A stretch of DNA of 22,526 nt. It comes from Chrysochromulina tobinii. Its lineage: Eukaryota > Haptophyta > Prymnesiales > Chrysochromulinaceae. The notes below the pieces were generated by a model. It was not told the origin of the DNA. It saw only the letters and a program-made list of their open reading frames with translations, and did no database searches. The translations under genes were made by a program, and so were the position numbers. Below, in pieces: positions 4,300 through 22,150 of this stretch (positions are counted from its first letter, which is position 1; the number at the start of each line of letters is the position of its first letter). The stretch is from the NCBI GenBank assembly GCA_001275005.1, contig JWZX01002017.1, forward strand, positions 1-22,526, in the 5' to 3' direction.

Positions 4300-7200
4300 T
4301 CACAAGAGCTGCCCGCGCAGCAGCGCCTCGACCTTCGCCTCGCGCCCGGCGCTCGGCGGCAAGGTGTTGAGCAGCATCTCGCGCAGCTCGTCCTCGGAGC
4401 GCCCGCCACGGCGCTGCTCGCGAATCCACGGAAGCCAAGAGGGGTCGATTGCCTTTTCGGGCGCGTCGAGCCATGAGGCGTCAATTGCTCTTTTCATCTC
4501 CTCCTCCAACTGGCCGAGCTCGTCCTTGAGCGCGGGCGTCAGCCCACCAGCGGCGAGGAACTCGGCCAGCGAGATCTTGCCGTCACCGTCCGTGTCCATC
4601 TTATTGAAGTGTATCTTCGCTTCTTCTTCGGGGACCTTCCACGCATGGGCGAGCTCCTCGACACTCACGTAGCCGTCCCCGGACGTGTCGAGGAGCTTGA
4701 AATGGGAGATGAGCTCTTTGCTGCGCCGCTTGAGCTCCGCGATCCGAGCCTTGGTGGATCGGACCTGATGAGGGACGCAATCAGACGCAATCAGACGTCA
4801 TCAGAGGATCCTCGGCGGATCGGACCTGATGAGGGACGCAATCAGACGCAATCAGACGTCATCAGAGGATCCTCGGCGGATCGGACCTGATGAGGGACGC
4901 AATCAGACGCGCGTACCTCGGAGCTCCGCACAGGCTCGTATTTGCGCCTCCATCTCGCGCCATGGACCACGCCGACGATGAGGGTCGGTGTCAGGAGGAG
5001 TAGCCAGAACATCGGCAGCAGTATGCCGAGTAGGTCGTCGAAGGTGGACACGTTGGGCATTGTGACGAGCCCGGTGTTCATCAGAGCGAGCACCACGAGC
5101 GACAGCCCCAGCCCCGCGAACACCTTGAGCGCTGGGTCATCGCCCAACACGGCGCTAGAGTGGGCCGTTGCGCTCCAGAGACCAAATACGAGCAGAGGCG
5201 CGAGGAGAAGGAAGAGAGGGGTGATGCGTACCTGATGCCCGAGGCGATCCGCCCACGATGAGCATGTAATTGGTGTGCAATCCGTATGCAATCCGTATGC
5301 AATCCGCACGGCAGCCCGAGCAGAAGGAAGTGAGGGGTGTGAAGAGAGGGGTGTGAAGAGAGGGGTGTGAAGAGAGGGGTGCTGCGTGCGCGGTATGGGG
5401 GCGGTGCGGTGGGGCGGTACGGGGGGCGGTACGGGGGCGGTACGGGGGCGGTACGGGGGGCGGTACGGGGGGCGGTACGTACCACTCCGGACGGTGCGAG
5501 CAGTGCGAGCAGCGTGATCGCCAGCGTGAGCCCAAGCGACGGGAGCGACGCGAAGAAGCGCGGATGCCACCCTCGCGCAATCAGCGCCGAGGGCATCTGG
5601 AGGGCGAGATGCTCCGTGGCCTCTACGAGCCATGGCAGCTCGTGCTGGGCGCATGGGCGCACCTGATGAGGGAGGCAATCAGCATGCAATCAGCGGCACG
5701 CAGACGCACTCAACCGCAATCAGCGGCAATCGGTCGCACTCGGGGGCAGCTCGGGGGCAGCTCGGGGGCACACACACCTGGTGCCGCGGGGTCACTCGAT
5801 AGGGTACGTGCATCGCCGAGCACCGAGCACGTCCACTCGCGAGAGCTGCGCGCTGTGCCGTATCCAGAGGGGTGGCCGGTGCGGGCAGCATTCGCAGAGG
5901 GGATCGCTGTGAACGCGCCGGGGTACGCGGCCCGCGCTGGAGGATGGCCGCGTTCTGGTTCTGGACGAGATTTTTCAGCACGCGCTCATTCGACTTGATG
6001 AGTTCGTCAATGGCGATGAGCGGCGGAACGGCGACGTGGCTGGTGAAGAGGCCGGGACTCGAAGGGCTCATTAGGGCTCGTCAGGGCTCATTAGGGCTCA
6101 TCAGGGCTCATTAGTGGAGGCACTCACCTGGTGAAGAGGCCGGGGCTTGAAGGGCTCCCGAGCCCGACGAGCGTCGTGCCGAGCGCGGACGATGCCTGGC
6201 GGCGCGAGAGCTCATCGGAGGCCTTGTGGAGGTGCTGGTCCAGCTGACGAAACCGAGAATTGGGCGGGGGGAGAGGGCTCCTCTCAGCGGTCGGCCATCC
6301 AGCGAGAGAGGCGATCTCCCTTCGGAGATCATCGGAGCTGTGCTCCTCCGAGTGTGCGCGCATGCAAGGGCGCGCGCATGCAAGGGCGCGCGCATGCAAG
6401 GGCGCGCGCATGCAAGGGCGCGCGCATGCAAGGGCGCGCGCATGCAAGGGCGCGGCCTTCCCCCACACCTTGTTGAGTAGCTCGTACAGCTTGGTGGGGA
6501 GGTAAGCTTCACACGAGGAGCGCCAGCCGTCGATACATTTCTTCCAGCATTGCTGCAGCTCGACCGGCGCGAACTCACACTCCATCAGCAGCATAGCGAA
6601 CTCGGCCTGATCGAGACCTTCCTCAGCGGAGCTGCTCCGGAGGTCATACTTCTTTAGCATCTCCCGAGCCTGATGAGGGAGGTCATCAGAGGTCATCAGA
6701 GACCATCAGAGGTCATCAGAGGTCATCAGAGGTCATCAGAGGTCATCAGAGGCAATCATACTTCTGGAGCATCGCCCGAGCATGTGGCCATCAGCGGCCA
6801 TCAGCGGCCATCAGTGGCCATCAGCGACAATCCGTGGTAATCCGCGGCCATTCTTGGCAAGCTGTGGCACGCAGCAGCAATCAGCGGCACTGAGCGACAC
6901 GCAGCGACAGTGAGCGGCAATGAGCGCCCACCTGTAAATCAGAGACCTGGATGCCGAAATGAATATGCAGAGCTCGCCTGACCTCGTACGCGGAGATGCG
7001 GCCGTTGCCGTCTTTATCGAAGTCATTGAACGCCCTGATGATCTCTTGTGGAATGCCCTCAAAGTCGAGAAGCTGCCGGATGAGCACCTGTTAAAGGGGG
7101 GGCACGGGGTGGAGCGCTCAGGGCTGACCGTCGAGGGGTCATCAAGTGGCAATCCGAGGCCATCAGAGGTGCAATCAGGCAGTCAAGTGACAAGCAGGCC

Positions 7201-10200
7201 ATCAAGTGGCAATCGCACCTCGCCCAGCTCGCGAAGCGGGTGATTCGCGGGCAAGCCCCCATGGGTGATGAGGGAGTTGCTTGAGTACAAGAGCTGCTCG
7301 AGCGCCTCCCCCATGCTCTTCATGACCGGTAGCAACTCGAACACTTCGAGCCGGTCGAAGACTTCGGCGACGCCTCGAAGCATCGCGAGGTCCTTATCAC
7401 ACTTTTTGGGATCGCGTTTGGGATCGAATTCGAAGCGATCGAGCGTCACCTCCTTCGCGACGCTCGTGAGCAGCCGCGCGTACATGAGGTAGTTACGCTT
7501 GACGAACCCCGCCCACGAGCGGCCGTCAACCTTCGCCTTCTCGGCCGCCGCCTTCTCGGCCGCCGCCTTCTCGGCCGCCGTCTTCTCAGCCGCCGCCTTC
7601 GCCGCGACCAAATAGGCAGCGCTCGTCCACGGCGTGAGGAAGAGCGTGCACGCGCGGATCAGGTGGATGACGCGAGTCGAGTTTGTTGGCAGATATTCGA
7701 GCTGGTTGTTGAAGAAGTGGTACCTGATGAGGGAGGTCATCAACGGTAATCAGGGTCACTCAGGGAGGATCGGGTACCTGATGAGGGAGGTCATTATGGA
7801 CAATCAGGGACACTCAGGGAGGATCGGGTACCTGATGAGGGAGGTCATCATGGACAATCAGGGTCACTCAGGGAGGATCGGGTACCTGATGAGGGAGGTC
7901 ATTAACGGTAATCAGGGTCACTCAGGGAGGATCGGGTACCTGATGAGGGAGGTCATCAACGGTAATCAGGGTCACTCAGGGAGGATCGGGTACCTGATGA
8001 GGGAGGTCATCATGGACAATCAGGGTCACTCAGGGAGGATCGGGTACCTGATGAGGGAGGTCATCATGAACAATCAAGGTCACTCAGGGAGGATCGGGTA
8101 CCTGATGAGGGAGGTCATCATGGACAATCAGGGTCACTCAGGGAGGATCGGGTACCTGATGAGGGAGGTCATCAACGGCAATCAGGGGGCACTCCGAGGG
8201 CTCTTAGTGTTCATCAGCAGCGTACATCGGCACCGCGACCAACGAGTGTGGGGAGCGATTGGTATTCAGTCCCTTGGCCTCTTGGTCGCCATACGATTTG
8301 AGAGCAGCGAGGATCGCCGCCTTGCTGCCGTCCGGAGGGCAACACGAAGACCACGCCTCCCCAGGCTTCTTGATGCTCGTCCCCTCAGCCAGAGCCCGGA
8401 GCTCATCGAGAGTCATCGCGTCCATCTTCTCACGACGGCGGCACAGTTCCGCGCTGATGAGGGGGGCAATCAGTGGCTGATGAGGGGGCAATCAGAGGCT
8501 GAGGAGGGTGGCAATCAGTGGCTGAGGAGGGAGGCCATCAGAGACTGTCAATGGCAATCAAGCCGAATGGCCTCTCGGGCAGTCAGCTTCAATCGGTGGC
8601 CATGAATGGCAATCGGTAGCAATTATGTCGGTTCAATCGGTGACCATGAATGGCAATCAGAGGCAATCAGAGGCAATCAGAGGCAATCAGAGGCAATCAT
8701 GTCGGTACCGGCGAGCCATCTGAAGCTCATGTGCGTTCAGATGATCGAAGAGGCATGGGAGGCAGCCGAGGACCGCATAATTGGTGAGTTCTGACTCGGT
8801 CGCAGGCGGACGGAGCGATAGCTGTGAACGAACGGGGTGCGAAGTGTGAACGGAGGGGGATGACGTCGCGCGCGCGCGAGAGAGAGCACTCCGCGGCACT
8901 CGGCGGCAAATGTGCGCAAGAACTCCTACCTGCTTGATAAGATGCGGCTCGCCGTTCTGTGCCAGCCAGAATTGCGAGAGCGAATGGAGCAACAGCTCCG
9001 CGTCTGCACGCAAGGCACCACTCAGAGGGCTCTGCCTGAGCTCCTCGCATTCGCGCTTGCGTGCATCACGCTCCGCACTGATGCCGAGAGGGAGGAAGTG
9101 GTGCAGGTAGCTCTTCAGCACGATCACGTATAGGGGCTCAAGATTCGTCACGCCGAGCCCAAGCACGTTGCCAAGCGCCGTGTCGGGCGCCTTGAGCGCC
9201 CACCGCTTCTGGACGAAATCGGACAAGGCATTTTCGCCTGATGGAGGGGGGGCATGATGAGAGAGGCCATCAGGGGGGGGCATGATGAGAGAGGCCATCA
9301 GGGGGGCATGATGAGAGAGGCCATCAGGGGGGGCATGATGAGAGAGGCCATCAGGGGGGGCATGATGAGAGAGGCCATCAGGGGGGGGCATGATGAGAGA
9401 GGCCATCAGGGGGGGCATGATGAGAGAGGCCATCAGGGAGGCCGATGAGAGAGAGGCACTCAGCGGTGACCTCACCGGCGGACGAGAGAGGCCATTGGCA
9501 AAAGAGGAACAGGTAGTATTCCCAAGCAGTGAGCCGGAGAGAGTCCTTCGGAAAAGCTGCTCTCAACTCGTTGCGATCGATGTGGCCGTCCCCGTTGCGG
9601 TCGATGCTGTGGACGTTGAGACGTTGCTGGAAGAGGGTCGGCAACGGCTGTCCAGCTCCAAGGTAGTGCCGGCACGCTGCTGGCAGGCACTTGCAGAAGA
9701 ACAGGTAGAGGTATTTGGGCGTGAGGGCCAAGCCGTTGGCGTCCACCCGCATCGACACTTCGCGCCACTTTTGGAAGAGGATCCCGGTGCGCGCGCCCTG
9801 TGGCGAGGGGGCCTCGAGCAGTCCGAGGAGTTTCTCCTGGAGCGCGGCTGCCTCGCGCACCTGAGGGGGCAATTAGGGAGGCAATTAGGGAGGCAATTAG
9901 GGAGGCAATTAGGGAGGCAATCACGGAGGCAATTAGGGAGGCAATTAGGGAGGTCATTAGGGAGGTCATCAGGGAGGTCCTCAGCGGCAGTGCCGTACAT
10001 TCCTTCTCGGCTCGACGAGCAGGTTCGCTTGCTCGTTCAGCCAGGCGTGATTCGTCGCCACGCCCCCACTGCCTCCCACCGTGACGTCTCCAAAGAGGCC
10101 GATCATCAGCTGCGGAAGGGTCCTGTGGAAGACCTCCAGCTCGTCGCCCTCCATCTGTGCCGCGTACTTGGCGCACGCCTCCGTCGCTTCGGATGGCGAC

Positions 10201-11306
10201 CTGATGAGGGAAGCCATCAGAGGCCATCAGAGAGGTCATCAGAGAGGTCATCAGAGAGGTCATCAGAGAGGTCATCAGAGGTCGTTAGAGGTCATTAGAG
10301 GCAATCAGGGGATACCAGTCGAGCACCTCGAGCAGGCGCACGCCTCTCGAGCACGCACGCCATCAGAGGCCATTAGAGGCCATCAGAGGCCATCAGAGGC
10401 AGCTCACCATTCGAGCAGCTCGAGCAGGCGCACGCCGCTCGTGTACACGCGTCGATCGCGATCGAAGACGCCTCGACGAGATTGCCCTGTGACAACAGCG
10501 CCCTGTGACGGCAGGTCGCCTGGCATGTTCACGTTGAACACCCAGAGGCCGAGGACGAGGAGGAGGAAGAGGAGGGCTACGCACCCGATCAGACCCGTGA
10601 CGACGAAGTCGGTGTTCGACTTGTTGCGTGCGGCGCTGGAGGGAACCTCCCTGCGACCCGATGGGCGACCTGAGAGGCCGGGCGCCTCCCGGGCCGGCTG
10701 CTGCGCCTCCACCTCTTTCATCGCGTGCTGCTCGTGCTGCTCCTCTACTCGACGCGCCTCCTCCGCCGCCTTCTGCTCCTGCGCCGCACGGAGTCCCTCC
10801 GCGGCCTTTGTGGCTGCGGCGGCGTCGGCCTCATCGGCGGCGCGCTGCAGCTCGTCGGCCGCGTGCTTGGCCGCGTCGCTCACGTACTCGCACCGCACGT
10901 CGCCCAGCGTCGCCACCTCCGCAGCGTTGCCACCTCCGTCGGCGGGCACGAACCACTGCGTCGCCACCGGAGAGTGGCGCTGCGAGCTGCGCGTATGCAG
11001 CAGCGGCTCGAGGCGTCCGCCGACGACGGCGCCGAGCGTCCATCCGGAGCGACGCGGCTCGTACTGGATGCGGAAGTGCTGCGCGCCGTCCATGGCGTCG
11101 AAGACGTCGGAGACCTCGCCGCCGGCATCCTCACGCTCAAGTTGTCGATGCTTGTAGGCCGCCGCATTGAGCGCCTGCTCGAGCCGAGGGTCCTTGGCGA
11201 GGCGTGCAGGGTAGTGGCCTCTGAAGACCACCTCGACGAGGTCGGGAGTCTTGGATATCACGACTCGGTCAGCGGCGGAATGGGCGAGAAGGACGAGACC
11301 GAGCAT
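4300..11306 (-). CDS. large multi-pass membrane protein with EF-hand calcium-binding domains (14 exons)
   Basis: Exons on the minus strand, in order: 11306-10408, 10200-9999, 9860-9476, 9237-8930, 8794-8709, 8453-8226, 7723-7219, 7087-6932, 6669-6469, 6345-6128, 6039-5778, 5662-5483, 5231-4917, 4764-4300. All 13 introns are GT-AG and every junction keeps phase, giving 4410 nt (1469 residues). Visible parts: a possible N-terminal signal (MLGLVLLAHS), a coiled coil at about 146-203, a transmembrane helix at about 234-257, canonical EF-hand loops at about 454-465 (DRNGDGHIDRNE) and 895-906 (DKDGNGRISAYE, followed by a degenerate partner), four hydrophobic helices at about 1188-1299, and a C-terminal EF-hand pair at 1341-1352 (DTSGDGYVSVEE) and 1372-1383 (DTDGDGKISLAE). 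It is probably a calcium-regulated membrane protein; I recognise no whole-length family. ATG 11306 is the first in-frame ATG. The acceptors at 8794 and 6345 are the least certain. The introns carry unusual repeats, listed separately. Confidence 0.8.
4753..4916 (-). repeat. intron 13 with a 61-bp tandem repeat that includes the acceptor and exon 14 start
   Basis: The sequence GGACCTGATGAGG recurs at 4761, 4822 and 4883, a period of 61 bp. In transcript sense each unit contains CTGATTGCGTCCCTCATCAG followed by GTCCGATCC, the first bases of exon 14. The acceptor and exon start are therefore present three times, but only the last copy continues the protein. The intron proper is 4765-4916. Confidence 0.8.
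5232..5482 (-). repeat. intron 12: degenerate copy of exon 13 start plus two microsatellites
   Basis: Bases 5317-5339 match the start of exon 13 (5201-5223) at 21 of 23 positions. This copy passes directly into a 15-bp array (GTGTGAAGAGAGGG core, about 5336-5380) and a GCGGTACGGGG array (about 5400-5480). The exon fragment seems to have seeded the microsatellite. The donor is GTACGTACC and the next exon starts GTACGCATC. Confidence 0.7.
6040..6127 (-). other. intron 10, flanked by direct repeats of the exon 10 end
   Basis: The 88-nt intron runs from GTGAGTGCC to CTTCACCAG. About 29 nt before the donor (AGCCCTTCAAGCCCCGGCC then TCTTCACCAG) are repeated before the acceptor (AGCCCTTCGAGTCCCGGCC then TCTTCACCAG). 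The repeat spacing, 88 bp, equals the intron length. Only a short series of (T)GAGCCCTAA/GA-type units lies between. Confidence 0.85.
6361..6456 (-). repeat. 16-bp tandem array in intron 9
   Basis: Six perfect copies of CATGCAAGGGCGCGCG start at 6361, 6377, 6393, 6409, 6425 and 6441. The GCGCGCATGC part is alternating purine-pyrimidine and self-complementary. The array fills most of the 123-nt intron (6346-6468). No CTGATG body repeat is visible here, so this intron looks different from the others. Confidence 0.85.
6670..6931 (-). repeat. intron 8: 10-bp array and copy of exon 9 start
   Basis: Eight 10-bp units (GGTCATCAGA on +, CTGATGACCT in transcript sense) occupy about 6681-6760. Directly beyond them, 6757-6781 matches the start of exon 9 (6645-6669) at 22 of 25 positions, 112 bp away. 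The 3' end is CTGATGACCTCCCTCATCAG, able to pair as a 7-bp stem with a 6-nt loop. Confidence 0.8.
7536..7595 (-). repeat. 15-bp coding repeat in exon 7
   Basis: Four copies of a 15-bp unit (CCTTCTCGGCCGCCG on +) encode an AAEKA-type repeat in the EF-hand membrane protein. The period keeps the frame. It is probably a short charged helix or linker. Confidence 0.75.
7721..8180 (-). repeat. 54-bp tandem array filling intron 6
   Basis: TACCTGATGAGGGAGGTCAT starts at 7721, 7775, 7829, 7883, 7937, 7991, 8045, 8099 and 8153: nine copies with an exact 54-bp period and few substitutions. In transcript sense each unit carries TGATGACCTCCCTCATCAG followed by GTACCCG, so every unit offers an acceptor and a GT. 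The 502-nt intron (7724-8225) starts GTACGCTGC and exon 7 starts GTACCACTT. Because 54 is a multiple of three, a spurious long + frame runs through it. Confidence 0.9.
8454..8708 (-). repeat. intron 5 with 10-bp oriented repeats
   Basis: The two ends hold GGCAATCAGA-type 10-bp units (about 8651-8700, and 8466-8540 in looser form). In transcript sense these are CTGATTGCCT. The 3' end is CTGATTGCCCCCCTCATCAG. Splicing joins exon 5 (ends ...CGCCG) to exon 6 (CGCGG...) in phase. Confidence 0.7.
9245..9440 (-). repeat. 27-bp tandem array in intron 3 with variable G-tracts
   Basis: CATGATGAGAGAGGCCATCAG starts at 9253, 9281, 9307, 9334, 9361, 9389 and 9416. The period varies from 26 to 28 because the poly-G run between copies changes length. 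In transcript sense each unit is a C-tract followed by CTGATGGCCTCTCTCATCAT. The intron is 9238-9475. Confidence 0.85.
9861..9998 (-). repeat. 12-bp tandem array in intron 2
   Basis: Nine near-identical units of AATTAGGGAGGC occupy 9871-9978 and grade into CATCAGGGAGGT at one end, showing that this family is a relative of the CATCAG repeats elsewhere. Donor GTACGGCAC, acceptor CCCCTCAG; exon 3 starts GTGCGCGAG. Confidence 0.85.
10201..10407 (-). repeat. intron 1 with a copy of the exon 1 end including its donor
   Basis: Bases 10316-10349 match the end of exon 1 (10408-10441) at 31 of 34 positions, 92 bp away, and the copy keeps the GT that follows (CTCGACTG/GTATCC against CTCGAATG/GTGAGC). 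The rest is 12-bp AGAGGTCATCAG-type repeats. The 3' end is CTGATGGCTTCCCTCATCAG. Confidence 0.8.
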
Positions 11307-11755
11307 TTGCGCGCTCGCTTCCTGATGATGAGTGCGAGCGCGCGGGACCGACCCACTGTGAACCAAATCACTCTACCGTTTATGGCGGTCAGCGTCGCTG
11401 CATTGCGTCGCTGTTTGCCTGTTTCGCTGAGTCGCACTGAGTGACCGAGTGACCGGGGGCCACACAAGGGGGGCCACATATACATATATATACGCCTCTC
11501 CTTATACGGTACATGTGCAGGTTTTGTGCACTGCGTACATGCCTCTGGGCGAGGCAAGTGGACGTGGTGTGCTTGCTTGTTTGCTTGCTGCCGGGCTTGG
11601 TGTCGTCGGTGTCATTCTCTCTGTCGACGGTGCGGTTTCGGCGGCTATTTTTGGCCGTTGACGAAACAAAAGCAGCGAGCGTGTTCGCTCGATCGTGTGG
11701 TCCCGCTGCTTTTGTCCTTGCAGCGGGAGCGTCACGGTGGCGCCGAGCCAAGTCA
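11307..11755. promoter_or_regulatory. divergent intergenic region between the EF-hand and PP2C genes
   Basis: No convincing gene. The start codons of a minus-strand and a plus-strand gene point away from this stretch, so it probably holds both promoters. An AT-only tract (ACATATACATATATATA, 11476-11492) is the only TATA-like element in a GC-rich setting and could be read from either strand. Which gene it serves cannot be told. Confidence 0.4.
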
Positions 11756-11991: not shown

Positions 11992-13392
11992 GTTCATGCA
12001 CCGACCGTCGAATCGCAGGATCAAGACTCGCAGGCGTATCGCGGCAAGCGCCGCGAACGCAGAGGTGTACGCAAGCCGCAACAAAAAGATACCCCCCCTC
12101 TCCGAGAAGGCGACGAATGTGACGAAGGCACTTGCATCGTCCTATGACATCACGTCGTCCGGCTTCAAGGCAGCTTTGGATCCAGGTGGGCCACTGTTCG
12201 AAGTGCTCATCGGAGAGGCCGCGATCTCGCTCGACGGCGAGGACCAAATGATGGTGCGAGACGTGACGGTTCATGGGGAACGACTGGTGATCGCGCTTGT
12301 GGCCGACGGGCACTGCGGCAAGGAGGCATCGATGCATTGCAAGGCAACGGCCATCGACGAGCTCCTTAAGGCGCTTCACGATGCCCCGGTCGGCCCATCC
12401 CCAGATGCGACGCATGTGCCACCACAGATGGCTGTGGGGTCTTCCGAGCCTCCACAGATGGCTGTGGGGTCTTCCGAGCCTCCACAGATGGCTGTGGGGT
12501 CTTCCATGCCAGAGCGACGCCCAATCAGCGAGGCAGCGTCGGTGACCGGCACGGCGTCTGCGCATGCGAGCGCAGGGAGGCCTGTGAATGTGAATGGGTC
12601 AGCGCTTCCGGGGAGCCTTGCAGACGGGTCGCACGTGATCGCCGCCGGCAGGCGAGCCTTCCTCGTGACACACGACGAGGTGCGCGCGTTGCGGACCATT
12701 CTGATGACCACTGATGACGGCTGACGACACCTGGATGACGCCTGATGACGCCTGATGGTCTCCTTCATCAGGTGCGTGCGAGGGCCAAGACGGCTGGCTC
12801 TACGCTGAGCGTGGTCGTGCTCAACGCGACGCGAGCGGAGCTGACGATGCTGCAATGCGGCGATAGTCTTGCGCGTCTGATCCCTCGAAGGGCGGCCGCC
12901 CAATCCCTCTGCGAGGACCATCGGCTTGAGTCGTCCGAAGCCGAGCGCGCGCGGGTGGGTGCGCTAGGGGGGCGCATCGAGCGCGCCGTGGACACCTGCG
13001 GCCGGCCTTTTGGGCCCTTGCGCTTGTGGCCCAGCGGCGTCATCCAGGCGCGCACGATCGGGGATCAGGACGTCGGCCGCTACATCGAGCCGATGCCCTT
13101 TGCTCGCACGTATCGACTTCCGGCGGCGGAGTCGTGCGCGGTCGTCGTCGCCACGGACGGCGTCTGGGACGCTCTCTATCCAACGGCTGTCGATGGCATC
13201 ATTCGATCGTCGATGATGTGCCTGCCGGAAGATGCGGCGAAGCTGCTGATCAACTCGTCCCTGACGCAACGGCACGCGTACAGCAACGACGGGGACAGGA
13301 TCCCAAAGGACGATGCCAGCTGCATCGTGATCCGGATCGAGCACTCCAAAGACCTCTTGGTGCGCCACGGGGGCTTCTGCAGGCTATGTTGA
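11969..13392 (+). CDS. PP2C-type serine/threonine protein phosphatase
   Basis: Two exons, 11969-12679 and 12772-13392, join in phase 0 for about 443 residues. PP2C (PPM) motifs appear in order: GEDQ (metal Asp), VADGHCG (for the usual DGHGG), GSTLSVVVL, CGDSLARLI, EDHRLESSEAERARV with GGRIE, ARTIGDQDV, ATDGVWDAL, and DDASCIVIRI (final metal Asp). PPM enzymes remove phosphate from Ser/Thr using two bound Mg/Mn ions; all the Asp positions I expect are present. The second Gly of DGHGG is displaced (DGHCG). An insertion with three PPQMAVGSSE repeats separates the DGH helix from the GST strand. A basic N-terminus (RRIKTRRR) precedes the domain. ATG 11969 and ATG 11996 are both possible starts; the frame stays open upstream to at least 11924 without an ATG. 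Confidence 0.85.
12421..12510 (+). repeat. 30-bp coding tandem repeat in PP2C
   Basis: CACAGATGGCTGTGGGGTCT starts at 12423, 12453 and 12483: three nearly identical 30-bp units encoding PPQMAVGSSE. They sit in a linker insertion of the phosphatase domain. Confidence 0.9.
12680..12771 (+). other. PP2C intron of the shared CTGATGAC-repeat family
   Basis: This 92-nt GT-AG intron starts GTGCGCGCG and the next exon starts GTGCGTGCG. Its body is CTGATGACC-type repeats on the + strand, and it ends CTGATGGTCTCCTTCATCAG. In minus-strand genes the same motifs lie on the minus strand, so the repeat follows transcription. Confidence 0.85.
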
Positions 13393-13546
13393 TAATCTTT
13401 TCTGAGAATGCAGTATCTCCAGGACGGGAGCAGGACCAATTACCAGAGTCTTCGGCGTGAGAAATCACGCTTGAAATTCGACAATGATGATTTAGGATCG
13501 GAAAATCAACTCGTTTAATTGAATTTCCATTTTGGGGCGATTAACT

Positions 13547-14737: not shown

Positions 14738-15457
14738 CTACACTCCGTGCGCAAAGGGTGAGCGCCGTGACGAGCGCATCGGCGACATAGGCGAGCCAAG
14801 CGGACGGTTGGTGAAGCCCTTGGAGCGGTGCACCGGGCTGGACCGACGGCTCGTCATCGGCGAGCCCATTGGGGGCGTGCTCGCGGCGGGAGGGAGCGGG
14901 TAAGACAGCGAGGGCGAGGCGGGCGGTGACCGCATGTCCCACGGCACCTCGTACTCGGATGTGGCGCGCTTGCTTCCAGCAAAGGAGGCCATCGAGGCGG
15001 AGCGCGAGAACGGGCGCGGCGAGGTCGCGACCGAGTGCCAATTATTGCCCTCGGGATCGTAGGCGGACGAGCCCCAGTGCGTGGTCAGCGAGCGCTGGGA
15101 GGGGTTCAATACATTGTACTGCGGCGCCTTCGGCGGCGTGTTCCACTTGAGTGGCTGTGGGTGGTGGAGCGACTTGGAAGCCACGACTTGCAGCGATTGG
15201 GGAACCTGCCCAGGCAAGATGTGTGACGTCTCGTACGGGCGGTAGGCGTGTGACGTCTGCGGACGGTGGAGGAAGGCGAGGTGGTAGTTTGGCTGGAAAG
15301 GGAGGTTCACGTCCGACGAGGCCGGTGGCACATTGAGGTTCCATCCGGGCTCCTCGACAACGGCGTTCTCCTCGGCCGGCATTCTAAGCACCTGCCACAG
15401 CTGGCTCGAGGGCGGAAAACGCCCGTGGTAGGACGCAAAGTCAGAAGGCCTGACCAT
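14738..15457 (-). CDS. hypothetical Pro/Ser-rich protein with basic SP-repeat tail
   Basis: A 239-residue frame from ATG 15457 (the frame is open upstream without an ATG). The N-terminal half has well-spaced aromatic residues (RPSDFASYHGRFPPSSQLW, NYHLAFLHRP, HAYRPYETSH). The C-terminal third is basic with many Ser-Pro sites (TPPMGSPMTSRRSSP, GSPMSPMRSSRRSP), a pattern often seen in cytoskeleton-associated proteins phosphorylated by proline-directed kinases. No domain is recognised; the cytoskeletal link is a guess. Antisense ORFs over the same DNA look worse in composition. Confidence 0.5.
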   Translation of the reverse strand: MVRPSDFASYHGRFPPSSQLWQVLRMPAEENAVVEEPGWNLNVPPASSDVNLPFQPNYHLAFLHRPQTSHAYRPYETSHILPGQVPQSLQVVASKSLHHPQPLKWNTPPKAPQYNVLNPSQRSLTTHWGSSAYDPEGNNWHSVATSPRPFSRSASMASFAGSKRATSEYEVPWDMRSPPASPSLSYPLPPAASTPPMGSPMTSRRSSPVHRSKGFTNRPLGSPMSPMRSSRRSPFAHGV

Positions 15458-15605
15458 CGTGCGCGGCACACACACGTCCCTCCTCCAGCTCTCTCCCGCG
15501 CGCGTCTGTTACATTTCCTGAGCGTTTTTGATCAACTCTTCGCAACTGAACTTTGTAAAAACAACGTCTGACTTTGGAAAACAGAGGAAATGCTCGGAAG
15601 GCTTT

Positions 15606-16892
15606 CTAAGGAGTGATCGACGACACCGACTTGTTGATCGAGAGCGTGCGCCTCCGCCCCCGCCATTCGGTGCCCAACTTTTGTTGGTAGGCGACTGCGC
15701 GTCGTTTGCTTGCTTGTTGGTAGGCGGCGGCATGGATAGTAGTGGGACACCAAACGTCGGACCTTCGAAGGACGGACGGTCCTCGGTGTTCGGCGAGCGC
15801 ACGCTTTTCAGATAAGAGTGGCAGGCTGTCGTTAAAGATGAGGCGTCCGGTCGCCGAGTCACGCCCAAAGTGGCAGCACGCTCTCTTAAAGTGCGCCATC
15901 GGCGCTGGGGAACAAGATTCCCTGGAGATGAACCGGTCGGTGCAATAGTAGATGGCATTCTTGCACACTGCCGGGTTGGAGTCCGCGGGCCGATCCTCTA
16001 AAAAACGGACTTGGAGCGACGCCAGCGTGAGGCAGTCCGTCGCCCAGTGCTCAGGGAAGACACTCAAGACGCGAGCGATGTGCAGCGTCAAATGCGGCAC
16101 AAATTGCAGCTCGTCGTTGACATATGGCCTACGGCCGCTCGCGTGCCGCGCGTACGCTGGGCAAAGGACTATGAAGTCCCACTGTCCCACTGGCCACTGG
16201 CGCAGCAACGTCGTCGTCGTCGTCGCTTCCGGAGCACTCTCATTCCGTGCGAGCATCTTCTTCGCCTCGGCATGTGAGTGGATGGCACTCGGAACCCAGG
16301 GGAAGGAAAAGTAGACGCTGTCAGCGCCGCTGCTGTCCAGGAAGATCGCAAGCTTTTGCATCTCAGCGCCCAGCTTCGCAGGTTTCCAGAAAGCCATGTC
16401 GAATCGTATGACGAGGACGCTGTCATAACTGCGCTGAAAGGGCGGCCGGCGAAGCAGCTCGGACGTCCACATTTGGTGCCACAGGCGCCCTTGGTTGCTC
16501 GATGGCTCCAAATCGTACAGCGTGAGGCGGGGCATCTTGAGATGGGCCCCTGTCGAAGACTCCCCTCCCCTGGCCTTGTCGTCATACACCCGGTACATCA
16601 GAGCTAGCAAGTCCGTGCAGTAGGCGACCCTGTATGTGTGCAGCGAGATGTCGATCTCGAGCCCAACTTGGAGCGCATAGTAGAGCTCCCGGTGCGACGC
16701 GCTCGCGAGCTGCTGAGCCCTCATACGATCTGGCGAGCAGAGATGTGAGCTCAAGTCGCGAGATCCAGATCGAGATCCACGCCCGAAACCTGTCGCATCA
16801 TATCGGAACGATTCGCCTCTCACGAGCATGAGTAGCGAGGGTCGATGGCTGCTGAGAGGCTCCATCAGACGGGCTGCAGATCCATTCCCCAT
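15606..16892 (-). CDS. hypothetical protein, possibly glycosyltransferase-like
   Basis: A 428-residue frame from ATG 16892 (alternative ATG 16865); the frame is open further upstream to about 16994 without an ATG, so a 5' exon is possible. The protein looks globular: PSLLMLVRGESFR near the start, a long alternating hydrophobic/charged core, then YDSVLVIRFDMAFWKP, FSFPWVP, QWDFIVLCPAYARH and several Cys in the last third (CKNAIYYCTD, RACCHFGRD). The strand-RFD pattern after YDSVLV is reminiscent of a nucleotide-sugar-binding acidic motif, but I cannot name the family. The last 60 residues are basic and may be disordered. It diverges from the intergenic region carrying GCTGACCTAT at 17095. Confidence 0.55.
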   Translation of the reverse strand: MGNGSAARLMEPLSSHRPSLLMLVRGESFRYDATGFGRGSRSGSRDLSSHLCSPDRMRAQQLASASHRELYYALQVGLEIDISLHTYRVAYCTDLLALMYRVYDDKARGGESSTGAHLKMPRLTLYDLEPSSNQGRLWHQMWTSELLRRPPFQRSYDSVLVIRFDMAFWKPAKLGAEMQKLAIFLDSSGADSVYFSFPWVPSAIHSHAEAKKMLARNESAPEATTTTTLLRQWPVGQWDFIVLCPAYARHASGRRPYVNDELQFVPHLTLHIARVLSVFPEHWATDCLTLASLQVRFLEDRPADSNPAVCKNAIYYCTDRFISRESCSPAPMAHFKRACCHFGRDSATGRLIFNDSLPLLSEKRALAEHRGPSVLRRSDVWCPTTIHAAAYQQASKRRAVAYQQKLGTEWRGRRRTLSINKSVSSITP

Positions 16893-17661
16893 TCCGAGTT
16901 GATTGCGCTTGAGGAGCGAGGAGCAGCCTGCTTGCCTCGCCACTTGGAACTCGTGGACGCCACCGTGCGGAGAGACGGCAATCGGTAGCACCACGCCTCG
17001 GCCTGATGACTGGCCGAGCGGTCGAGGCGCGGCCTTGGTGGTCGTCTTGACTCGACCGTCGACCCTCTCTTCCCCTCTCGTGAATACAGAATTGGCTGAC
17101 CTATTTGCCTGTGGAAAGCCCAGCGAGACTCACAGAGTACCCTCTGCGAGGGTCGAAACAGCGTCCCGTCGGTTCAAATTCACGAGACGAAGGGGAGTGA
17201 CTCGGCGCGGGAGCCCCCACACATTCATGTGGATATGACCTTCCTCGCTCCTCGAGCTTCACGGCTGGAGAAGCTTGAACAGCGCTTGAAAGCTGTCCGC
17301 TGAGGACGATCATATCGTATGCACATACATGGGAAATAACAAATAAATGTTTACGACAGCAGGCACCGCACCAACTGGCACCAACACGTCCAGACACCAC
17401 TGTGGACACCTGGATCCGGGCGAGTGCAGATGCCCTCAGATAAGCGAGATCCACAGGCTGCGGCTGAGGTAGTGGAGCGCGGAGCGTGGATTAGGGTGAG
17501 GGGGGCCGCAGCCACAGGGGCACAGCACACGAGAGAACGAGAGCCTCTCAGAATCAAATCCCAACTCGGGTTTGGAGCTCTCCAAGCCATCTCCAATTTG
17601 GAGTTCAAGGCGTCCCAAATATCCGCACAATAGAGATCAAGCAGAAGATCTCACTGTGGGT
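16893..17661. other. intergenic region, promoter side of 15606-16892
   Basis: No supported gene. GCTGACCTAT (17095-17104) matches the two copies upstream of the cupin gene. Near 17560-17610, short segments (TTTGGAGCTCTCC, CCAATTTGGAG) resemble parts of the 44-bp satellite that follows, perhaps decayed copies. Confidence 0.35.
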
Positions 17662-17826
17662 GAGATTGCTCCCGAATTGGAGTGCCCTGAGCAATCTCAC
17701 CAATTGAGATTGCTCCCGAATTGGAGTGCCCTGAGCAATCTCACCAATTGAGATTGCTCCCGATTTGGAGTGCCCTGAGCAAAATCACCAATTGAGATTG
17801 CTCCCGATTTGGAGTGCCCTGAGCGA
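17662..17826. repeat. 44-bp satellite of nested inverted repeats
   Basis: GAGATTGCTCCCGA starts at 17662, 17706, 17750 and 17794, an exact 44-bp period. Each of the first units contains GAGATTGCTC, a 17-nt loop, then GAGCAATCTC, a perfect 10-bp inverted repeat. Adjoining units form a second one, CAATCTCA-CCAAT-TGAGATTG. The array ends about 50 bases past the desaturase stop, so it may be in its 3' UTR. The third unit has an AAAATC change that weakens the stem, and the fourth is truncated. Confidence 0.9.
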
Positions 17827-17878
17827 GCGCGCGTGCCGGCGCCGTGGCCAAATTAGCGTACCAGCGCTATGGGGGCTC

Positions 17879-19231
17879 TCACATGGTCACGTCCTCTTTG
17901 AGATGGTACGCCACGGGGAAGCGACGCATCGACGTGTTCCCCACCGCGATGTCGACCGTCTTCTTAAGGCGCCAGAAGACGTTCTCCTTGACGTAGGGGA
18001 CGCCGTGGCGCTTGCAGATGGCCTGGACGAGGGGCTGCGCCTTCTGGTACGAGAGCATCGAGAGATCGGGCCACAGGTGGTGCTCGATCTGGTAGTTGAG
18101 CCAACCATGCACGAAGTCGATCGTATCCGTCCCCGTCGCGAAATTGACGGAGCTGATCGTCTGGCGCAGATAGAAGCTCGGTGAGCGTGCGGCCGCGTGC
18201 CCCTCGAACCGGTAGAGGTCGTCGCCGCAATGGTTGGTGGCGACGACGAGGAAGGCCCACGCGTTCGTTGCAAGCTCGCCCAGCACCAGGTTGATCAGCG
18301 AGTAGTAGCCCGCGCTCTTCGCGTACGTGGCCGGCGCCGCGCCAAGCAGCACCGCACACATAGCCGCGACGGCCGCGACGAGGAGCGGCAGCAGCACGAA
18401 GCGTCCGACGAAGAAGGGGCCGAGGACGCGCCCGAAGAACTCGACGTTCGTAAAGTACTTCTTGTACCAGGGCGTCATCCACGAGCCCAGCACGCACGGC
18501 GCCTCCTCCTCGGTCTCCGTGAAGCCGGTCGGCTGACCGGTGCGACGCGTCTGGTTCAGCTTGAGCACCTTGAACGTGTTGGGCGAGTAGTAGTACCACT
18601 TCCAGGTGCAGGCCATGAAAGCGACGAGCACGTACTTGAGCGGCAGCAGCGCCTTGGGCAGGTCGCGCACCAGCTTGAGGTTGCGCTCGACGAGATCGGG
18701 ATCCTTATCCTCGCCCAGGAAGTAGTGGTGCAGCTGGTTGTGCTCGACGTTCCACGCCTCGACGAGCATCCAGTCGAGCCAGTCGACGCAGCGGCGCCAC
18801 AGGCTGCCCACGCCGAACGTGAAACGGTTGTACCGCCCGCCCGTGTCCAGGCGGTCGAAGCCGCCGTGGCACACGTGATGCGCCACGATCGTCCATCTCG
18901 TCATGCAGCCGAGAGCAAGAGCGGCAATGGAGAGCGGGTTGACGCCAAAGGCCATGGTGAGGACACCGAAGGCCGTGCAGGTGCGCGACCACCGGACGAT
19001 CTTGTGCAGGTGCTCGACGTCCGCCTTACCCTCCATCGCTTGCAGCTCCTTGCCGAGTTCCTTGAGCTCACGTGCAAACTCGGGCAGATCCAAGGATGCG
19101 ATCCAGCGATCCTCCTTGGCGAGCATCAAGCCGGTCAGCTTCTCCGCAGGCTTGTTGGCTGCCGCCGCTTGATCGAGCGAATGCTCGTACGATGGGTTGC
19201 GGCTCAGCACGTCCTCGTCGGTGGTCATCAT
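17879..19231 (-). CDS. membrane fatty-acid desaturase (three-histidine-box family)
   Basis: An intronless frame of 450 residues from MMTTDEDVL at 19231; the ORF is open further upstream but has no earlier ATG. The three histidine boxes are HHVCH (118-122), HNQLHH (164-169) and QIEHH (381-385), which bind the di-iron centre that inserts a double bond into an acyl chain. Hydrophobic segments lie before box 1 and between boxes 2 and 3 (about 195-212, 270-300 and 305-330). A Gln in the third box is typical of front-end desaturases, but there is no N-terminal cytochrome b5 domain (no HPGG), so the electron donor must be separate. The substrate and position of the double bond cannot be told. No plastid presequence is obvious, so an ER location is plausible. 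Confidence 0.85.
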   Translation of the reverse strand: MMTTDEDVLSRNPSYEHSLDQAAAANKPAEKLTGLMLAKEDRWIASLDLPEFARELKELGKELQAMEGKADVEHLHKIVRWSRTCTAFGVLTMAFGVNPLSIAALALGCMTRWTIVAHHVCHGGFDRLDTGGRYNRFTFGVGSLWRRCVDWLDWMLVEAWNVEHNQLHHYFLGEDKDPDLVERNLKLVRDLPKALLPLKYVLVAFMACTWKWYYYSPNTFKVLKLNQTRRTGQPTGFTETEEEAPCVLGSWMTPWYKKYFTNVEFFGRVLGPFFVGRFVLLPLLVAAVAAMCAVLLGAAPATYAKSAGYYSLINLVLGELATNAWAFLVVATNHCGDDLYRFEGHAAARSPSFYLRQTISSVNFATGTDTIDFVHGWLNYQIEHHLWPDLSMLSYQKAQPLVQAICKRHGVPYVKENVFWRLKKTVDIAVGNTSMRRFPVAYHLKEDVTM

Positions 19232-19522
19232 CGGAAGGGCGATTCGAGGGGCGATTCGAGGTCCAGGGACGATGCAGGTTGCGATCCAAAAATGCGTCGG
19301 GTGCACGCGGGAGATGGCTGAGCTCCAGCGATCCCACGAAATGTCCGATTTGCGCCCGTGAAACGTCAGAATCAGATTCGGCGGTGCTTGCCAACGCGGC
19401 CTTTGCGCGGCCACGCACCTGCGAGGTCATGGGGTCATAGAAAAGAGGATTACCATGCGCATGTAACGACACATTGTGTTTCGGGTTTCGTTTGGGGTTT
19501 CTCAGAGCGAATCCAGAAACCC
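19232..19522. other. short intergenic region, desaturase promoter side
   Basis: It separates the oxygenase stop from the desaturase start; both genes are on the minus strand. A 13-bp direct repeat (GGGGCGATTCGAG type) lies at about 19237-19260, just upstream of the desaturase ATG. Nothing else is recognised. Confidence 0.35.
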
Positions 19523-20983
19523 TCAATCCACAACGAGTGCGGGTGGCTGCAACTCCTCGTACGGCACCCAGCACCCATGCAAGCCGTACGGCACGGCGCC
19601 CGGCAGGGCGAGCACTGCGACGATCACGTCGCACTCGTCGCCCCGCCACTCGCCGTCTAACTTCTGCGCGTCCAGCACATAGAGCCGCGAGCGGCGCCCA
19701 TCGCCAGCCTCGGCGCGCTCGGTGCCCATCACGGCGCGCTCAGGCTCGGCGCACGTGGCGAACACGAGCAGGTATCCTCGGTCGCCGTCGGCCGCGTCGT
19801 CCTGGGCCCCTCCAACGGAGTCTAGCTTGGGCACGAAGCAGCATTCGCTCACCACGTACCACCCGTCCGGTAGGCTCCACGTGCCCGCGAGGGCGCCGCT
19901 GCGTACATCCACCTTGATGACGGCATCGATTAGGATCCCTTCGAAAGGGGGGCCGTACCTGATGAAGGAGCCAATTACACTTAGTGGCCAGCAGTGGTCA
20001 TCCATGGTCATCAATGGTCATCAGTTGTCATAAGTGGTCATCATAGGTCATCAGTGGTCATCCGTGGTCATCAGAGGTCATCAGCGGGGCCCCCTTACCG
20101 GTTGGGCCCTCCCACCGTGCTGGGCCGGATCGCGAACGCGAAGCGCGCGTCGCGCCCCTGGAGCCTCGGGTCGAGTGCGGGGAACTCGAGGGGCACGTCG
20201 CAGAGCGGCTGCTCGGCAATGCACTTGCCTGAGAGTAGGTCGACAAGCCAGCGGTCATCAGGAGACATCAGTGGTCCTCAGTGGTCATCAGTGGTCCTCA
20301 GTGGTCCTCAGTGGTCCTCAGAGTGCACTTACCGGTGCGCGGGTCGACCAGCCAGCGGTGCAGGAACGCCGCTGAGTAGGCCTCGATGAAGGAGGAGGGC
20401 GTCGCTGGTTCTGAACGGAGCGCTGTCACGCAAACGAGCCCGTCGTCCCGCTCGTGTGCGTTGACCGTGTGCAGCACGACGCAAGGGTCCACCGCCGCCC
20501 ACATGACCTCCGACACGCCCGACACAGCGCCACCGTCCGCGGCGCCTCGAGCCTCGGGACCGCCCAATACGGCGCATCGAGCCTCGGGACCGCCCAATAC
20601 GGCGCGTGGCACGAGCCCTATGCGGCAGCCCGCTTTTGGTTCATAGGCCACAGGGAAGCGATCGAGGAGCAAACGGCGCGGGCGCACCTGATGAGGGACG
20701 TCATCAGAGGTCATCAGAGGTCATCAGAGCTCAGCAAACGGCGCGGGCGCACCTGAGGACGCACGAGAGGCCGTGCGTGCTCATCCACGGGGCCATCAGC
20801 GCTCATCAGTGGCCATCAGCGCTCATCAGAGGGGCCATCAGCCGATCGAGGAACCACCGAGCGCCGTGCCGGGCGCTCGCATGCCAATGGGGAGGCAAGC
20901 GCCGTGCTGGGCGCACCGTCAGAGCGAAGTCGAGCACCACCACGTAACCACCATGGCCGGCCACGTAACCACCACCATCCGGC

Positions 20984-21043
<60 letters not shown>

Positions 21044-22150
21044 CCACCACCACCATTCACAGCACCATTCACAGCAGCTTGCCCTCTGCCCGCCGGTGAT
21101 GCATCGCTCGAGTGTGCACGCCGGCTGGCCGTGATCGCGCAGTCGTGGATCATGCAGGCGGCCTCGCCGGCCAGAGGGAGGACCACTGGTGTGAATGGGC
21201 GGCCGTTGGCATCGAAGCGGTCGATGCGCGCGGCGGGCGGCCCGCTGGTGCAGTAGGTGACGCCGATGGCCTCGTGGGTGAACGGATCGACCTGCAATCA
21301 GTGGCAATCAGTGGCCATCAGTGGCCATCGGAGGCAATCAGTGGCCATCAGTGGGTGAACGGATCGACCTTCACATGGGCTATCGGTGGCAATTCACTGT
21401 CCATCCATGTCAATCCATGTCAATCCATGTCATCCGTGGCAATCCGTGGCAATCGACCTTGAAATGGGCCGTGGTCGCGCCGCCTGAAAATGGAAAGCGC
21501 TGCCTGTCGAGCATGATGCCGTCAAAGTCGCAGCTGGCGCGCGTCGTGGTGAGCGTCGCGTCAGTGGCGACGGTGAACTCGCACGGAAGGCATTGCTCCA
21601 TCAGGGCCAACACGCGCCCCGTGCCGCGTAGGCGAAGAAATGCCGTGTTTGCCGTGTCCTTCTGGGGCTGGGCCGCGCGCACGGCGTTCTTGAACAAGGC
21701 CCAGAGGAGCCGGTAGCCGTCCGGCGCCACGAGCGAGCCTAGGAAGAGGCCCTCTCCTGCCGCCTCCTCCTTGGAAAATCCGCAGGTGCGCAAGTAGGTG
21801 CGGCTGTAGCGGGGCTCGGATGCATCGGGCGGAAGCACCACACAGTGCACCATGCCGTCGCCGTCGAGCCATCCGCCCGCGGAGTCGTAGCGCGCATTCG
21901 GCCCGTTTTTGAGCACCGCACCGCGCGGAAAGTCGGAAGGGAGGCCGCCTCGCACAAAGGCCGCCTTGGCACTGCGGACCTCTGTGGCCACCGGCTTAAA
22001 CAGATCATTCATGATCTCGTTATTGCGTCCTTGAAGGTGCGCGTTGCGCAGCGCACGCTCGTTGGCGCCGGCAGTGATGCTCAGGCTAGCGATCGTCGGA
22101 GTCAGGGCAGCGACCAGGGCAAACACAAGGAGACTCGCCATGGCCACCAT
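19523..22150 (-). CDS. carotenoid cleavage dioxygenase (RPE65/CCD family)
   Basis: Five exons: 22150-21458, 21291-20917, 20687-20333, 20228-20099, 19958-19523. All phases agree, giving 662 residues. The family's four iron-binding histidines are all present: AHFKVDP (about H229, at the exon 1/2 junction), MIHDCAIT (H280), VVLHTVNA (H429) and YGLHGCW (H645). Other family features are the GLPSDFPRGAVLKNGPNARY and GWLDGDGMVH motifs in exon 1 and RIGLVPR in exon 3. CCDs split a carotenoid double bond with O2 to give apocarotenoids; the substrate cannot be told. The N-terminus (ASLLVFALVAALTPTIAS) is a signal peptide, which in an alga with a complex plastid could start a bipartite plastid signal. 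Oddities are an in-frame insertion of about 60 residues with polyalanine right after MIHDCAIT, a 30-bp coding duplication in exon 3, and introns with copies of flanking exons. Confidence 0.9.
19959..20098 (-). other. CCD intron 4, 10-bp repeat type
   Basis: A 140-nt intron, GTAAGGGGG to CCTTCATCAG. The body is CTGATGACCA-type 10-bp repeats in transcript sense (about 19985-20085). Exon 5 starts GTACGGCCC, similar to the intron start. Confidence 0.8.
20229..20332 (-). other. CCD intron 3, splice junctions inside a 104-bp direct repeat
   Basis: The 104-nt intron runs from GTAAGTGCA to CTCTCAG. The exon 3 end and donor (CGCTGGCTGGTCGACC, then GGTAAGTGCA) are duplicated at the acceptor (CGCTGGCTTGTCGACC, then GGCAAGTGCA), with spacing equal to the intron length. 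The exon 4 copy has GC where the donor has GT. Splicing restores WLVDPRTGKC. Confidence 0.85.
20541..20605 (-). repeat. 30-bp coding duplication in CCD exon 3
   Basis: Two 30-bp copies, 20541-20570 and 20571-20600, encode AVLGGPEARC-type repeats in a loop between RIGLVPR and the third His motif. The frame is kept. Confidence 0.85.
20688..20916 (-). other. CCD intron 2 with a perfect copy of acceptor and exon 3 start
   Basis: A 229-nt intron. Bases 20733-20756 are identical (24/24) to 20668-20691, the start of exon 3 plus the last acceptor bases, 65 bp away. The donor is GTGCGCCCAG and exon 3 starts GTGCGCCCGC. The 3' end is CTGATGACGTCCCTCATCAG. Confidence 0.85.
20986..21042 (-). repeat. 19-unit AGC/GCT trinucleotide repeat (polyalanine)
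   Basis: AGC repeated 19 times without interruption on +, read as GCT on the coding strand of CCD exon 2, gives Ala at about residues 315-333. It is flanked by Gly/Asn-Gly repeats and lies about 35 residues after the second iron-binding His. Confidence 0.9.
21292..21457 (-). other. CCD intron 1 containing an intact copy of the coding junction
   Basis: A 166-nt intron, GTCGATTGCC to ATTGCAG. Bases 21351-21380 reproduce exon 1 end joined to exon 2 start without interruption and would encode AHVKVDPFTH, against AHFKVDPFTH in the spliced product. 20 bp match exon 2 exactly (21351-21370 against 21274-21293). The rest is GGCAATCAGT-type 10-bp repeats and GTCAATCCAT units. Confidence 0.85.

What the first reader, a model, noticed from the sequence alone, without database searches (positions are those of the whole stretch)
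4765..21457. A shared introner-like family: oriented 10-12-bp repeats and exons that start with GT
Introns of three unrelated genes on both strands have CTGATGACCT-type bodies in the transcript sense. Of 18 introns in these genes, 11 end in CATCAG and 11 are followed by an exon starting GT (1 in 16 expected). Often the intron's first 5-9 bases equal the next exon's first bases, for example GTGCGCGCG against GTGCGTGCG in PP2C. That is the mark of duplicated AG/GT at insertion, as known for introner elements and for tandem-duplication intron gain.
Basis: partly seen in the sequence, partly recalled or inferred. Interest (0 to 1): 0.9.

Follow-up and report, generated by a model that had tools for sequence, protein, structure and literature searches.

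The report
Algal introns that copy themselves
In an uncultured marine alga, new introns appear to arise when the tail end of an existing intron is copied into the middle of another gene, with 18 to 50 letters of that gene duplicated around it, and in two cases both a source and a destination gene were found.

Summary
The genome (53 Mb, eukaryote, probably a haptophyte) has 1157 exact copies of the 15-letter intron end TGCCTCCCTCATCAG (reversed control 0); 782 (68%) are followed by GT. Repeat clusters lie in transcript sense (62 of 73; 0 antisense, 11 undetermined). The intron/exon match is not 5-9 bases but a direct duplication T of 18-50 nt at 24 curated sites: T(GT...)-E(...CAG)-T(GT...). 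Splicing removes T+E and restores the exon. The insert E brings CTGAT (branch-site-like) and the AG; the host exon supplies the 5' splice site. Of 22 sites in stretches fetched as a fresh test, 9 show T (mismatched pairs 0 of 456). A second, unrelated family has the same anatomy. For 2 of 5 inserts searched, a source intron was found in another gene: the insert is a 5'-truncated copy that ends exactly at the source's AG and carries a piece of the source gene's exon; a third has a probable source. This argues against a transposon with two defined ends and against simple AGGT duplication. I read it as introner-type intron gain by copying intron tails; template switching (slightly favoured) versus reverse transcription is unresolved. 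No RNA data.

The parts
19523..22150 (-). RPE65-type carotenoid oxygenase gene; exons 22150-21458, 21291-20917, 20687-20333, 20228-20099, 19958-19523
   Evidence: Spliced product 662 aa, Pfam RPE65 3.9e-64, against 1.6e-20 and 5.8e-15 for the first and last exon frames alone
20688..20916 (-). RPE65 intron 2 (229 nt), ends GTCCCTCATCAG, next exon starts GTGCGCCCGCGC; contains a T-E-T unit
20733..20756 (-). Left copy of duplicated target T (24 nt with the shared TCAG, 20 nt from GT) inside intron 2
   Evidence: Identical to 20691-20668
20668..20691 (-). Right copy of T, from GT on the start of exon 3
21292..21457 (-). RPE65 intron 1 (166 nt), two successive insertions at one AAG|GTCGAT site
   Evidence: 20-nt duplicate 21370-21351 / 21293-21274, 100% identical; diverged duplicate 21469-21452 / 21380-21363
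20229..20332 (-). RPE65 intron 3 (104 nt), CTGAGGACCA repeats, 18-nt flanking duplicate 20359-20342 / 20255-20238 (17 of 18)
19959..20098 (-). RPE65 intron 4 (140 nt), CTGATGACC repeats, ends CTCCTTCATCAG, next exon starts GTACGG
12680..12771 (+). Intron of the PP2C gene (by inspection), CTGATGACG repeats, starts GTGCGCGCG, ends CTTCATCAG, next exon GTGCGTGCG
   Evidence: PP2C domain in the frame that follows
7724..8187 (-). Tandem array of 54-bp units in the EF-hand gene; 9 module ends, one per 54 bp, each unit running GTAC...CATCAG
4749..4910 (-). 61-bp units (2.7 copies) at an EF-hand gene 3' splice site; each copy repeats the exon start GTCCGATCC
6670..6781 (-). EF-hand gene insertion with 26-nt duplicate (6781-6756 / 6669-6644, 88%); T starts GC, a possible GC-AG intron
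10350..10441 (-). EF-hand gene insertion with 36-nt duplicate (10441-10406 / 10349-10314, 92%)
5663..5775 (-). EF-hand gene, probable intron tail with the full 20-nt module CTGATTGCCTCCCTCATCAG, next exon GTGCGCCC
   Evidence: intron start not tested

Best explanation
This is an introner-type invasion in which new introns are made from the tails of old ones. A piece of an existing intron (any 5' start, but ending exactly at the intron's AG) is copied into an exon, and 18-50 nt of that exon end up duplicated on both sides: T-E-T. The insert brings CTGAT (branch-site-like, often tandemly repeated) and the 3' splice site; the duplicated exon piece starts with GT and serves as the 5' splice site, so splicing removes T+E and leaves the mRNA unchanged. 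When such an intron is copied again, part of the previous host's exon travels inside it. Shown here: T-E-T anatomy, dispersed 3' module, sense orientation, restored reading frames, two source-destination pairs. Inferred: that copying runs by template switching during DNA repair or replication (a growing strand leaves the target, copies a donor intron and re-enters the target slightly upstream at a short match just after AG); that the tight T+E total reflects selection for the shortest spliceable intron; that the CTGAT arrays and the 54/61-bp arrays grow later by tandem duplication.
For: Module 1157 exact copies, 782 followed by GT. Fresh test: 9 of 22 sites with anchored T of score 12 or more, 0 of 456 mismatched pairs. 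Arrays: flanking repeats of score 14 or more in 60 of 114, null 4 of 307. Curated sites: T 18-50, E 30-91, T+E 65-114, variance of T+E below shuffled (p 0.00015); 18 of 24 junctions open after removal, 20 of 24 introns with a stop or frameshift. Source pairs: C395 to C19, 58 nt of the insert identical plus 6 nt after AG; C1396 to C107, insert of 68 nt identical, common string 73 nt. Family 2 shows the same anatomy. For template switching: exons on C1191 and C2241 share 11 nt at the T start and 8 nt at the T end.
Against: Source introns found for only 2 of 5 inserts; a third (L028) has a probable source, and 2 found nothing but themselves. In 13 of 22 fresh-test sites no T of score 12 was seen. 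375 of 1157 modules are not followed by GT. Motif-free dinucleotide test over 66 duplications was not discriminating: GT/AG 28, other pairs up to 39. Unanchored test had a high null (64 of 214 against 58 of 78). Right-junction matches of the two traced pairs are 6 and 3 nt; unrelated T starts share 6 or more in 6.5% of pairs, so template switching rests mainly on one family-2 comparison. No RNA data.
Confidence: 0.62

Rival explanations
1. RNA route: the excised intron RNA, whose 3' end is the AG, is reverse transcribed at a nick in the target exon (target-primed), giving a precise 3' end, free 5' truncation and variable long target duplications, as in LINE-type insertion.
For: Only RNA marks the intron's 3' end physically; inserts in both traced pairs end exactly at the source AG; 5' ends are free and T length varies; 26 RVT_1 matches, 22 over the cut-off, exist in the genome.
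Against: C1191/C2241 exons match beyond the AG and at the T end, which excised-intron RNA would not require; no reverse transcriptase was linked to the module; the 7-bp hairpin is stable only in one module variant.
Confidence: 0.35
2. DNA transposon-type introner with terminal inverted repeats, cut and paste, with target duplication.
For: Dispersed family, target duplication; 5' splice site taken from the duplication, as published for Symbiodinium.
Against: No defined 5' end: in the traced pairs the insert starts inside the source's copy of its host exon (67, 73). T of 18-50 nt varies from site to site (81), unlike fixed 3-9 bp duplications.
Confidence: 0.04
3. Tandem duplication of an exon piece bearing AGGT creates the introns; the repeats are later expansions.
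For: Some duplicates contain AG|GT: the L025 carrier gene and window 21370-21274. Later tandem growth is evident in the 54- and 61-bp arrays.
Against: Between the copies lies sequence of a dispersed family; 15 of 24 curated sites have no AG before the left copy; two traced inserts come from other genes.
Confidence: 0.04
4. No common descent: the module is a strong 3' splice consensus selected in ordinary introns, and the repeats are slippage.
For: CTGAT looks like a branch site (recalled consensus), and a 3' end must be AG.
Against: 15-mer identity in 1157 copies, long host-exon duplications, and inserts shared between unrelated genes including exon-derived parts.
Confidence: 0.02

Closest known systems
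Introner elements (Gozashti et al. 2022, PMC9860276: outline, passages and sections 7, 8, 15, 17, 23 seen; Micromonas, PMC3879977: passages seen)
   Same: Dispersed similar introns in genes of a marine protist; insertion into exons with target duplication; element carries one splice site and takes the other from the duplication; mRNA length unchanged.
   Different: Published duplications 3-9 bp (4 bp in a Chrysochromulina, 8 bp in an Aureococcus example); here 18-50 nt at the curated sites. Free 5' end with pieces of earlier host exons; two unrelated families with one anatomy; tandem-repeat bodies, which that survey filtered as low complexity.
Introner-like repeated introns of Amoebophrya (PMC7789003, passages seen)
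   Same: Repeated introns with direct repeats at exon/intron borders in a marine protist.
   Different: There direct repeats of 3-5 nt, inverted repeats of 8-20 nt and non-canonical splice sites; here long direct repeats, no inverted termini seen, GT-AG.
New introns of Daphnia by double-strand break repair (PMC4202315, passages seen)
   Same: Direct repeats of exon bases at opposite ends of new introns, read as staggered breaks; repeats inside the introns.
   Different: Repeats of 4-12 bp there; no dispersed insert family or source intron described in the passages I saw.
Intron transposition and its variants (review PMC3443670, passages seen)
   Same: New introns that resemble existing introns of other genes; the review names reverse-transcription template switching as a possible variant.
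   Different: The canonical route is reverse splicing of a whole intron into mRNA, which predicts full-length copies and no target duplication.
Tandem genomic duplication of AGGT exons (PMC3443670 passages; potato case PMC4974935, listing only)
   Same: Intron start repeats the next exon's start.
   Different: Foreign insert between the copies; AG usually not part of the duplicate.

Membership tests
Introner elements | Many similar introns in unrelated genes of one genome | tested here: met
   1157 exact module copies, 933 of the second core (not all of those in introns); sites read lie in unrelated genes
Introner elements | Similarity spans the whole intron, both ends (criterion of the 2022 survey) | tested here: not met
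   The 3' end is shared; the 5' end is the host's own exon piece
Introner elements | Insertion into exons creating a new intron | tested here: met
   T-E-T and restored frames; absence in relatives of the L025 gene only inferred
TIR DNA transposon | Two defined ends with inverted repeats | tested here: not met
   Insert 5' ends differ and start inside the source's exon-derived copy (67, 71, 73)
TIR DNA transposon | Short fixed-length target duplication | tested here: not met
   18-50 nt, variable
Tandem AGGT duplication | Nothing but duplicated exon sequence between the splice sites | tested here: not met
   30-91 nt of foreign E at the 24 curated sites
Tandem AGGT duplication | AG|GT in the exon piece | tested here: inconclusive
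   AG before T in 9 of 24 (81); AG|GT inside T at other sites
Target-primed retroelement | Fixed 3' end, 5' truncation, variable target duplication | tested here: met
   71, 73, 81, 98
Target-primed retroelement | A reverse transcriptase that recognises the insert's 3' end | not tested
   26 RVT_1 matches listed, none examined for the module
Reverse-splicing intron transposition | Complete intron at the new site, no target duplication | tested here: not met
   5'-truncated insert with T duplication

The most novel reading that the evidence does not exclude
Intron gain in this lineage needs no transposon. Any intron tail with a branch site and AG can be copied into an exon by a general cellular process (template switching or RNA-templated repair), with the new host providing the 5' splice site. 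Each jump adds a slice of the last host's exon, so introns hold a readable record of the genes they have passed through.
Probability: 0.35. Interest if true: 0.95.

Novelty: new variant of a known kind. Interest (0 to 1): 0.86.

Why it matters
How new spliceosomal introns arise is an old open question with few caught events. Here a source and a destination of the same intron tail can be named (100% identity over the 68-nt insert in one pair), target duplications are intact, and the genome holds over a thousand exact copies of one tail. The carried exon fragments let the direction of copying be read from sequence alone, and ocean metagenomes could supply presence/absence data. Because many bodies are tandem repeats, introner surveys that filter low-complexity families may have missed this class.

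Tried and rejected
Rejected or leading nowhere. Box C/D snoRNA or other known RNA in the repeats (resemblance of TGATGA/CTGA recalled): Rfam at gathering thresholds gave 0 matches in the window. Hairpin as recognition signal: the CTGATGA variant folds (z -3.57), the common CTGATTG module does not stand out (z -0.83). Viral vector: three viral-collection contigs with the 17-mer show no CTGAT arrays and look like chance; one contig has the family-2 core before a CACCACAG|GTGAGT end, not followed further. Second copy of the L025 gene in the assembly: none near-identical among the 100 matches listed.

Tests that did not discriminate, told as they came out. Motif-free dinucleotide test over 66 duplications in the 20 sampled loci: GT/AG 28, other pairs up to 39; split afterwards by insert motif it gives 22 of 38 on the sense strand, 7 of 38 antisense, and 3 of 28 without motif. 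Unanchored repeat test at module sites: 58 of 78 but null 64 of 214. Random-anchor control: 29 of 275 anchors reach score 20 because many fall in arrays, against 24 of 55 modules, so I relied on mismatched-pair nulls. Of 57 distinct duplications found at arrays, 42 were kept as clean; 23 have GT/AG at equal offset (28 with GC), reverse-strand control 9.

How the 24 curated sites were chosen: one search listed 85 single hits (48 family 1, 4 family 2, 33 neither). I kept by eye one hit per site on the sense strand whose insert ends in a family end and dropped 61: antisense hits, hits made of array sequence, tandem units, and sites whose AG comes from T or another end (for example window 21370). 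Their lengths were typed into. Six of 24 junctions are not open over the 90 nt tested; by eye several have another insertion just upstream. A 3-mismatch match on C449 was not looked at.

Literature. Open library only. 'introner' with 'template switching': one paper, the review PMC3443670, which names reverse-transcription template switching in passing. 'introners' with 'target-primed reverse transcription': one paper, PMC11782384. Searches on haptophytes or Emiliania or Chrysochromulina with introns and repeats listed no title or abstract describing this. Subscription journals and supplements were not seen, so I cannot say it is not in print.
Full report
WHAT THE WINDOW IS. The window is contig C953 of a 53.15-Mb, 2253-contig assembly. 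Ten frames were scanned; they include a fatty acid desaturase, a PP2C phosphatase, an RPE65-type carotenoid oxygenase, an EF-hand protein and a cupin. The desaturase is 99% identical to a metagenome protein and 63% to one from Coccolithus braarudii, a haptophyte. I take it as an uncultured marine haptophyte, an inference from one gene. Besides the window I held 20 systematically taken 10-kb stretches, 8 small motif-chosen loci (L004 and L005 overlap L003 and were dropped from the counts), 20 small module-chosen stretches and four small follow-up stretches.

THE OBSERVATION. Introns carry CTGATNRC-type repeats in transcript sense. By a codon-usage model trained on these loci, 62 of 73 array clusters lie sense to the coding strand, 0 antisense, 11 undetermined; in the systematic sample alone 32 of 38 sense, 0 antisense, 6 undetermined. 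The 15-mer TGCCTCCCTCATCAG occurs 1157 times exactly (reversed control 0) and 4468 times within two mismatches (control 45). It is followed by GT in 782 of 1157 cases, against 4.8% after CAG in the sampled loci.

T-E-T. The first bases of the intron repeat the first bases of the next exon, at 24 curated sites over 18-50 nt rather than 5-9. In transcript sense: exon | T | E | T exon, with T starting GT and E ending CAG. Fresh test: 20 stretches were fetched only because they hold TGCCTCCCTCATCAGGT; they contain 22 such sites, one with almost no upstream sequence. Nine of 22 have an anchored upstream copy of score 12 or more; 0 of 456 mismatched pairs do. At the 114 arrays of the earlier loci, flanking repeats of score 14 or more occur in 60, against 4 of 307 mismatched pairs. 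The curated insertions have T 18-50 (median 25), E 30-91 (median 49) and T+E 65-114 (median 77.5). T and E are negatively correlated (rho -0.63), and T+E varies less than under shuffled pairing (p 0.00015). I read this as a floor on spliceable intron length: a short insert survives only if T is long. Other sites differ: AG|GT lies inside T, or T straddles the start of an intron that was already there (by eye, L019).

SPLICING RESTORES GENES. 18 of 24 junctions are open over about 60 codons after removal of T+E; in 20 of 24 the unspliced sequence has a stop or a frameshift. RPE65 spliced by this rule gives one 662-aa product with a domain hit of 3.9e-64. An Arm repeat match, and filamin and asparaginase C-terminal matches below Pfam's cut-off, run across spliced junctions. 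On L025 the one intron of an EF-hand mitochondrial carrier is T three times with two different inserts between; splicing at AG|GT restores GAGAIGQ|VAVYPLEICKTRL.

TWO FAMILIES, ONE ANATOMY. A second core, GCTCACCACGGCGCC (933 exact copies, reversed control 0), lies in introns without CTGAT arrays that end CCCCACAG, with perfect T of 34, 24 and 30 nt on L008, L020 and L028 and 35 nt on L055. In the held loci the core (two mismatches allowed, 48 hits) also lies in sequence that is not such an intron, so the 933 are not all introns.

SOURCE AND DESTINATION. I searched the genome for the 5' parts of five inserts. L029 (C19, an asparaginase gene): its 5' part is found on C395 twice inside 80-nt T+E units and once, with one mismatch, in the exon that follows, so coding sequence of the C395 gene sits in the C19 intron as part of a copied tail; 58 nt of the insert plus 6 nt after the AG are identical. 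L040 (C107): its 68 nt are identical to the tail of a C1396 intron, beginning inside that intron's copy of its host exon (AACTCCG) and ending at its AG. L028 (family 2): two relatives, C1191 and C2241; 59 nt identical to C1191, including CTCCCCCT, the end of C1191's T, but C2241's T has those letters too, so this source is only probable. L030 and L031 found only themselves. A 24-mer with 3 mismatches is expected about 0.02 times by my own estimate.

MECHANISM. Fixed 3' end, free 5' end and long variable target duplication argue against a transposon with two defined ends and against whole-intron reverse splicing. Two routes remain. Template switching: the unrelated exons on C1191 and C2241 share GTACGTGGGCG at the T start and CTCCCCCT at the T end around similar inserts, as if a strand entered the donor at one short match and left it at another. 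Against it, the two traced pairs match by only 6 and 3 nt after the AG, and unrelated T starts share 6 or more in 6.5% of 276 pairs and 11 or more in none. Reverse transcription of excised introns explains the exact AG end directly. I put template switching slightly ahead.

AGE. Many T copies are 100% identical and one insert is identical to its source over 68 nt, so copying looks recent. Thirteen metagenome proteins 95-98% identical to the L025 carrier cross the intron site without interruption. Full-length close relatives also appear for the desaturase, read here as one uninterrupted frame, but none above 59% for the intron-rich RPE65 gene. This suggests that the L025 intron is absent from those relatives; the gene callers are unknown, so it is an inference.

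KNOWN WORK. Gozashti et al. 2022 cite 3-9 bp target duplications for earlier introner families and show 4 bp in a Chrysochromulina; they filtered low-complexity families (PMC9860276). Daphnia new introns have 4-12 bp repeats (PMC4202315 passages); a survey of 213 introns reports 4-30 bp, mean 11.4 (PMC11782384 passages); Amoebophrya 3-5 nt (PMC7789003 passages). I cannot say whether this genome was in the 2022 survey.

Noticed in passing
L008 1689, L020 4331, L028(-) 9802, L055, L056: Second intron-tail family (core GCTCACCACGGCGCC, 933 exact genome copies) with the same T-E-T anatomy; the core also occurs outside such introns.
   Followed up: partly
window 7724-8187 and 4749-4910: Tandem arrays whose every junction reads CAG|GT, so each 54- or 61-bp unit could itself be an intron; possible stepwise splicing.
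   Followed up: no
window 6756-6781: Duplicated target starts GC instead of GT: a candidate GC-AG intron.
   Followed up: no
window 17661-17824: 44-bp repeat, 3.7 copies, with ATTGAGATTGCTCCCGAATTGG-type units, between genes.
   Followed up: no
window 20982-21043: GCA repeat inside an RPE65 exon, read as a run of about 20 alanines.
   Followed up: no
L052 (IMGVR_UViG_3300027760_000958) 4495-4514: A contig in the viral collection (G+C 68%) holds the family-2 core followed by CACCACAG|GTGAGT, with GACGAACCCT repeats upstream; algal DNA or a virus carrying such an intron.
   Followed up: partly
L025 (-) 1558-1797: Three copies of T with two inserts of different repeat units: two successive insertions at one site, apparently absent from 13 close relatives.
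   Followed up: partly
G000 C127:6586-6684: Five exact modules at 21-bp spacing, a tandem array of the intron tail alone (from the place list).
   Followed up: no
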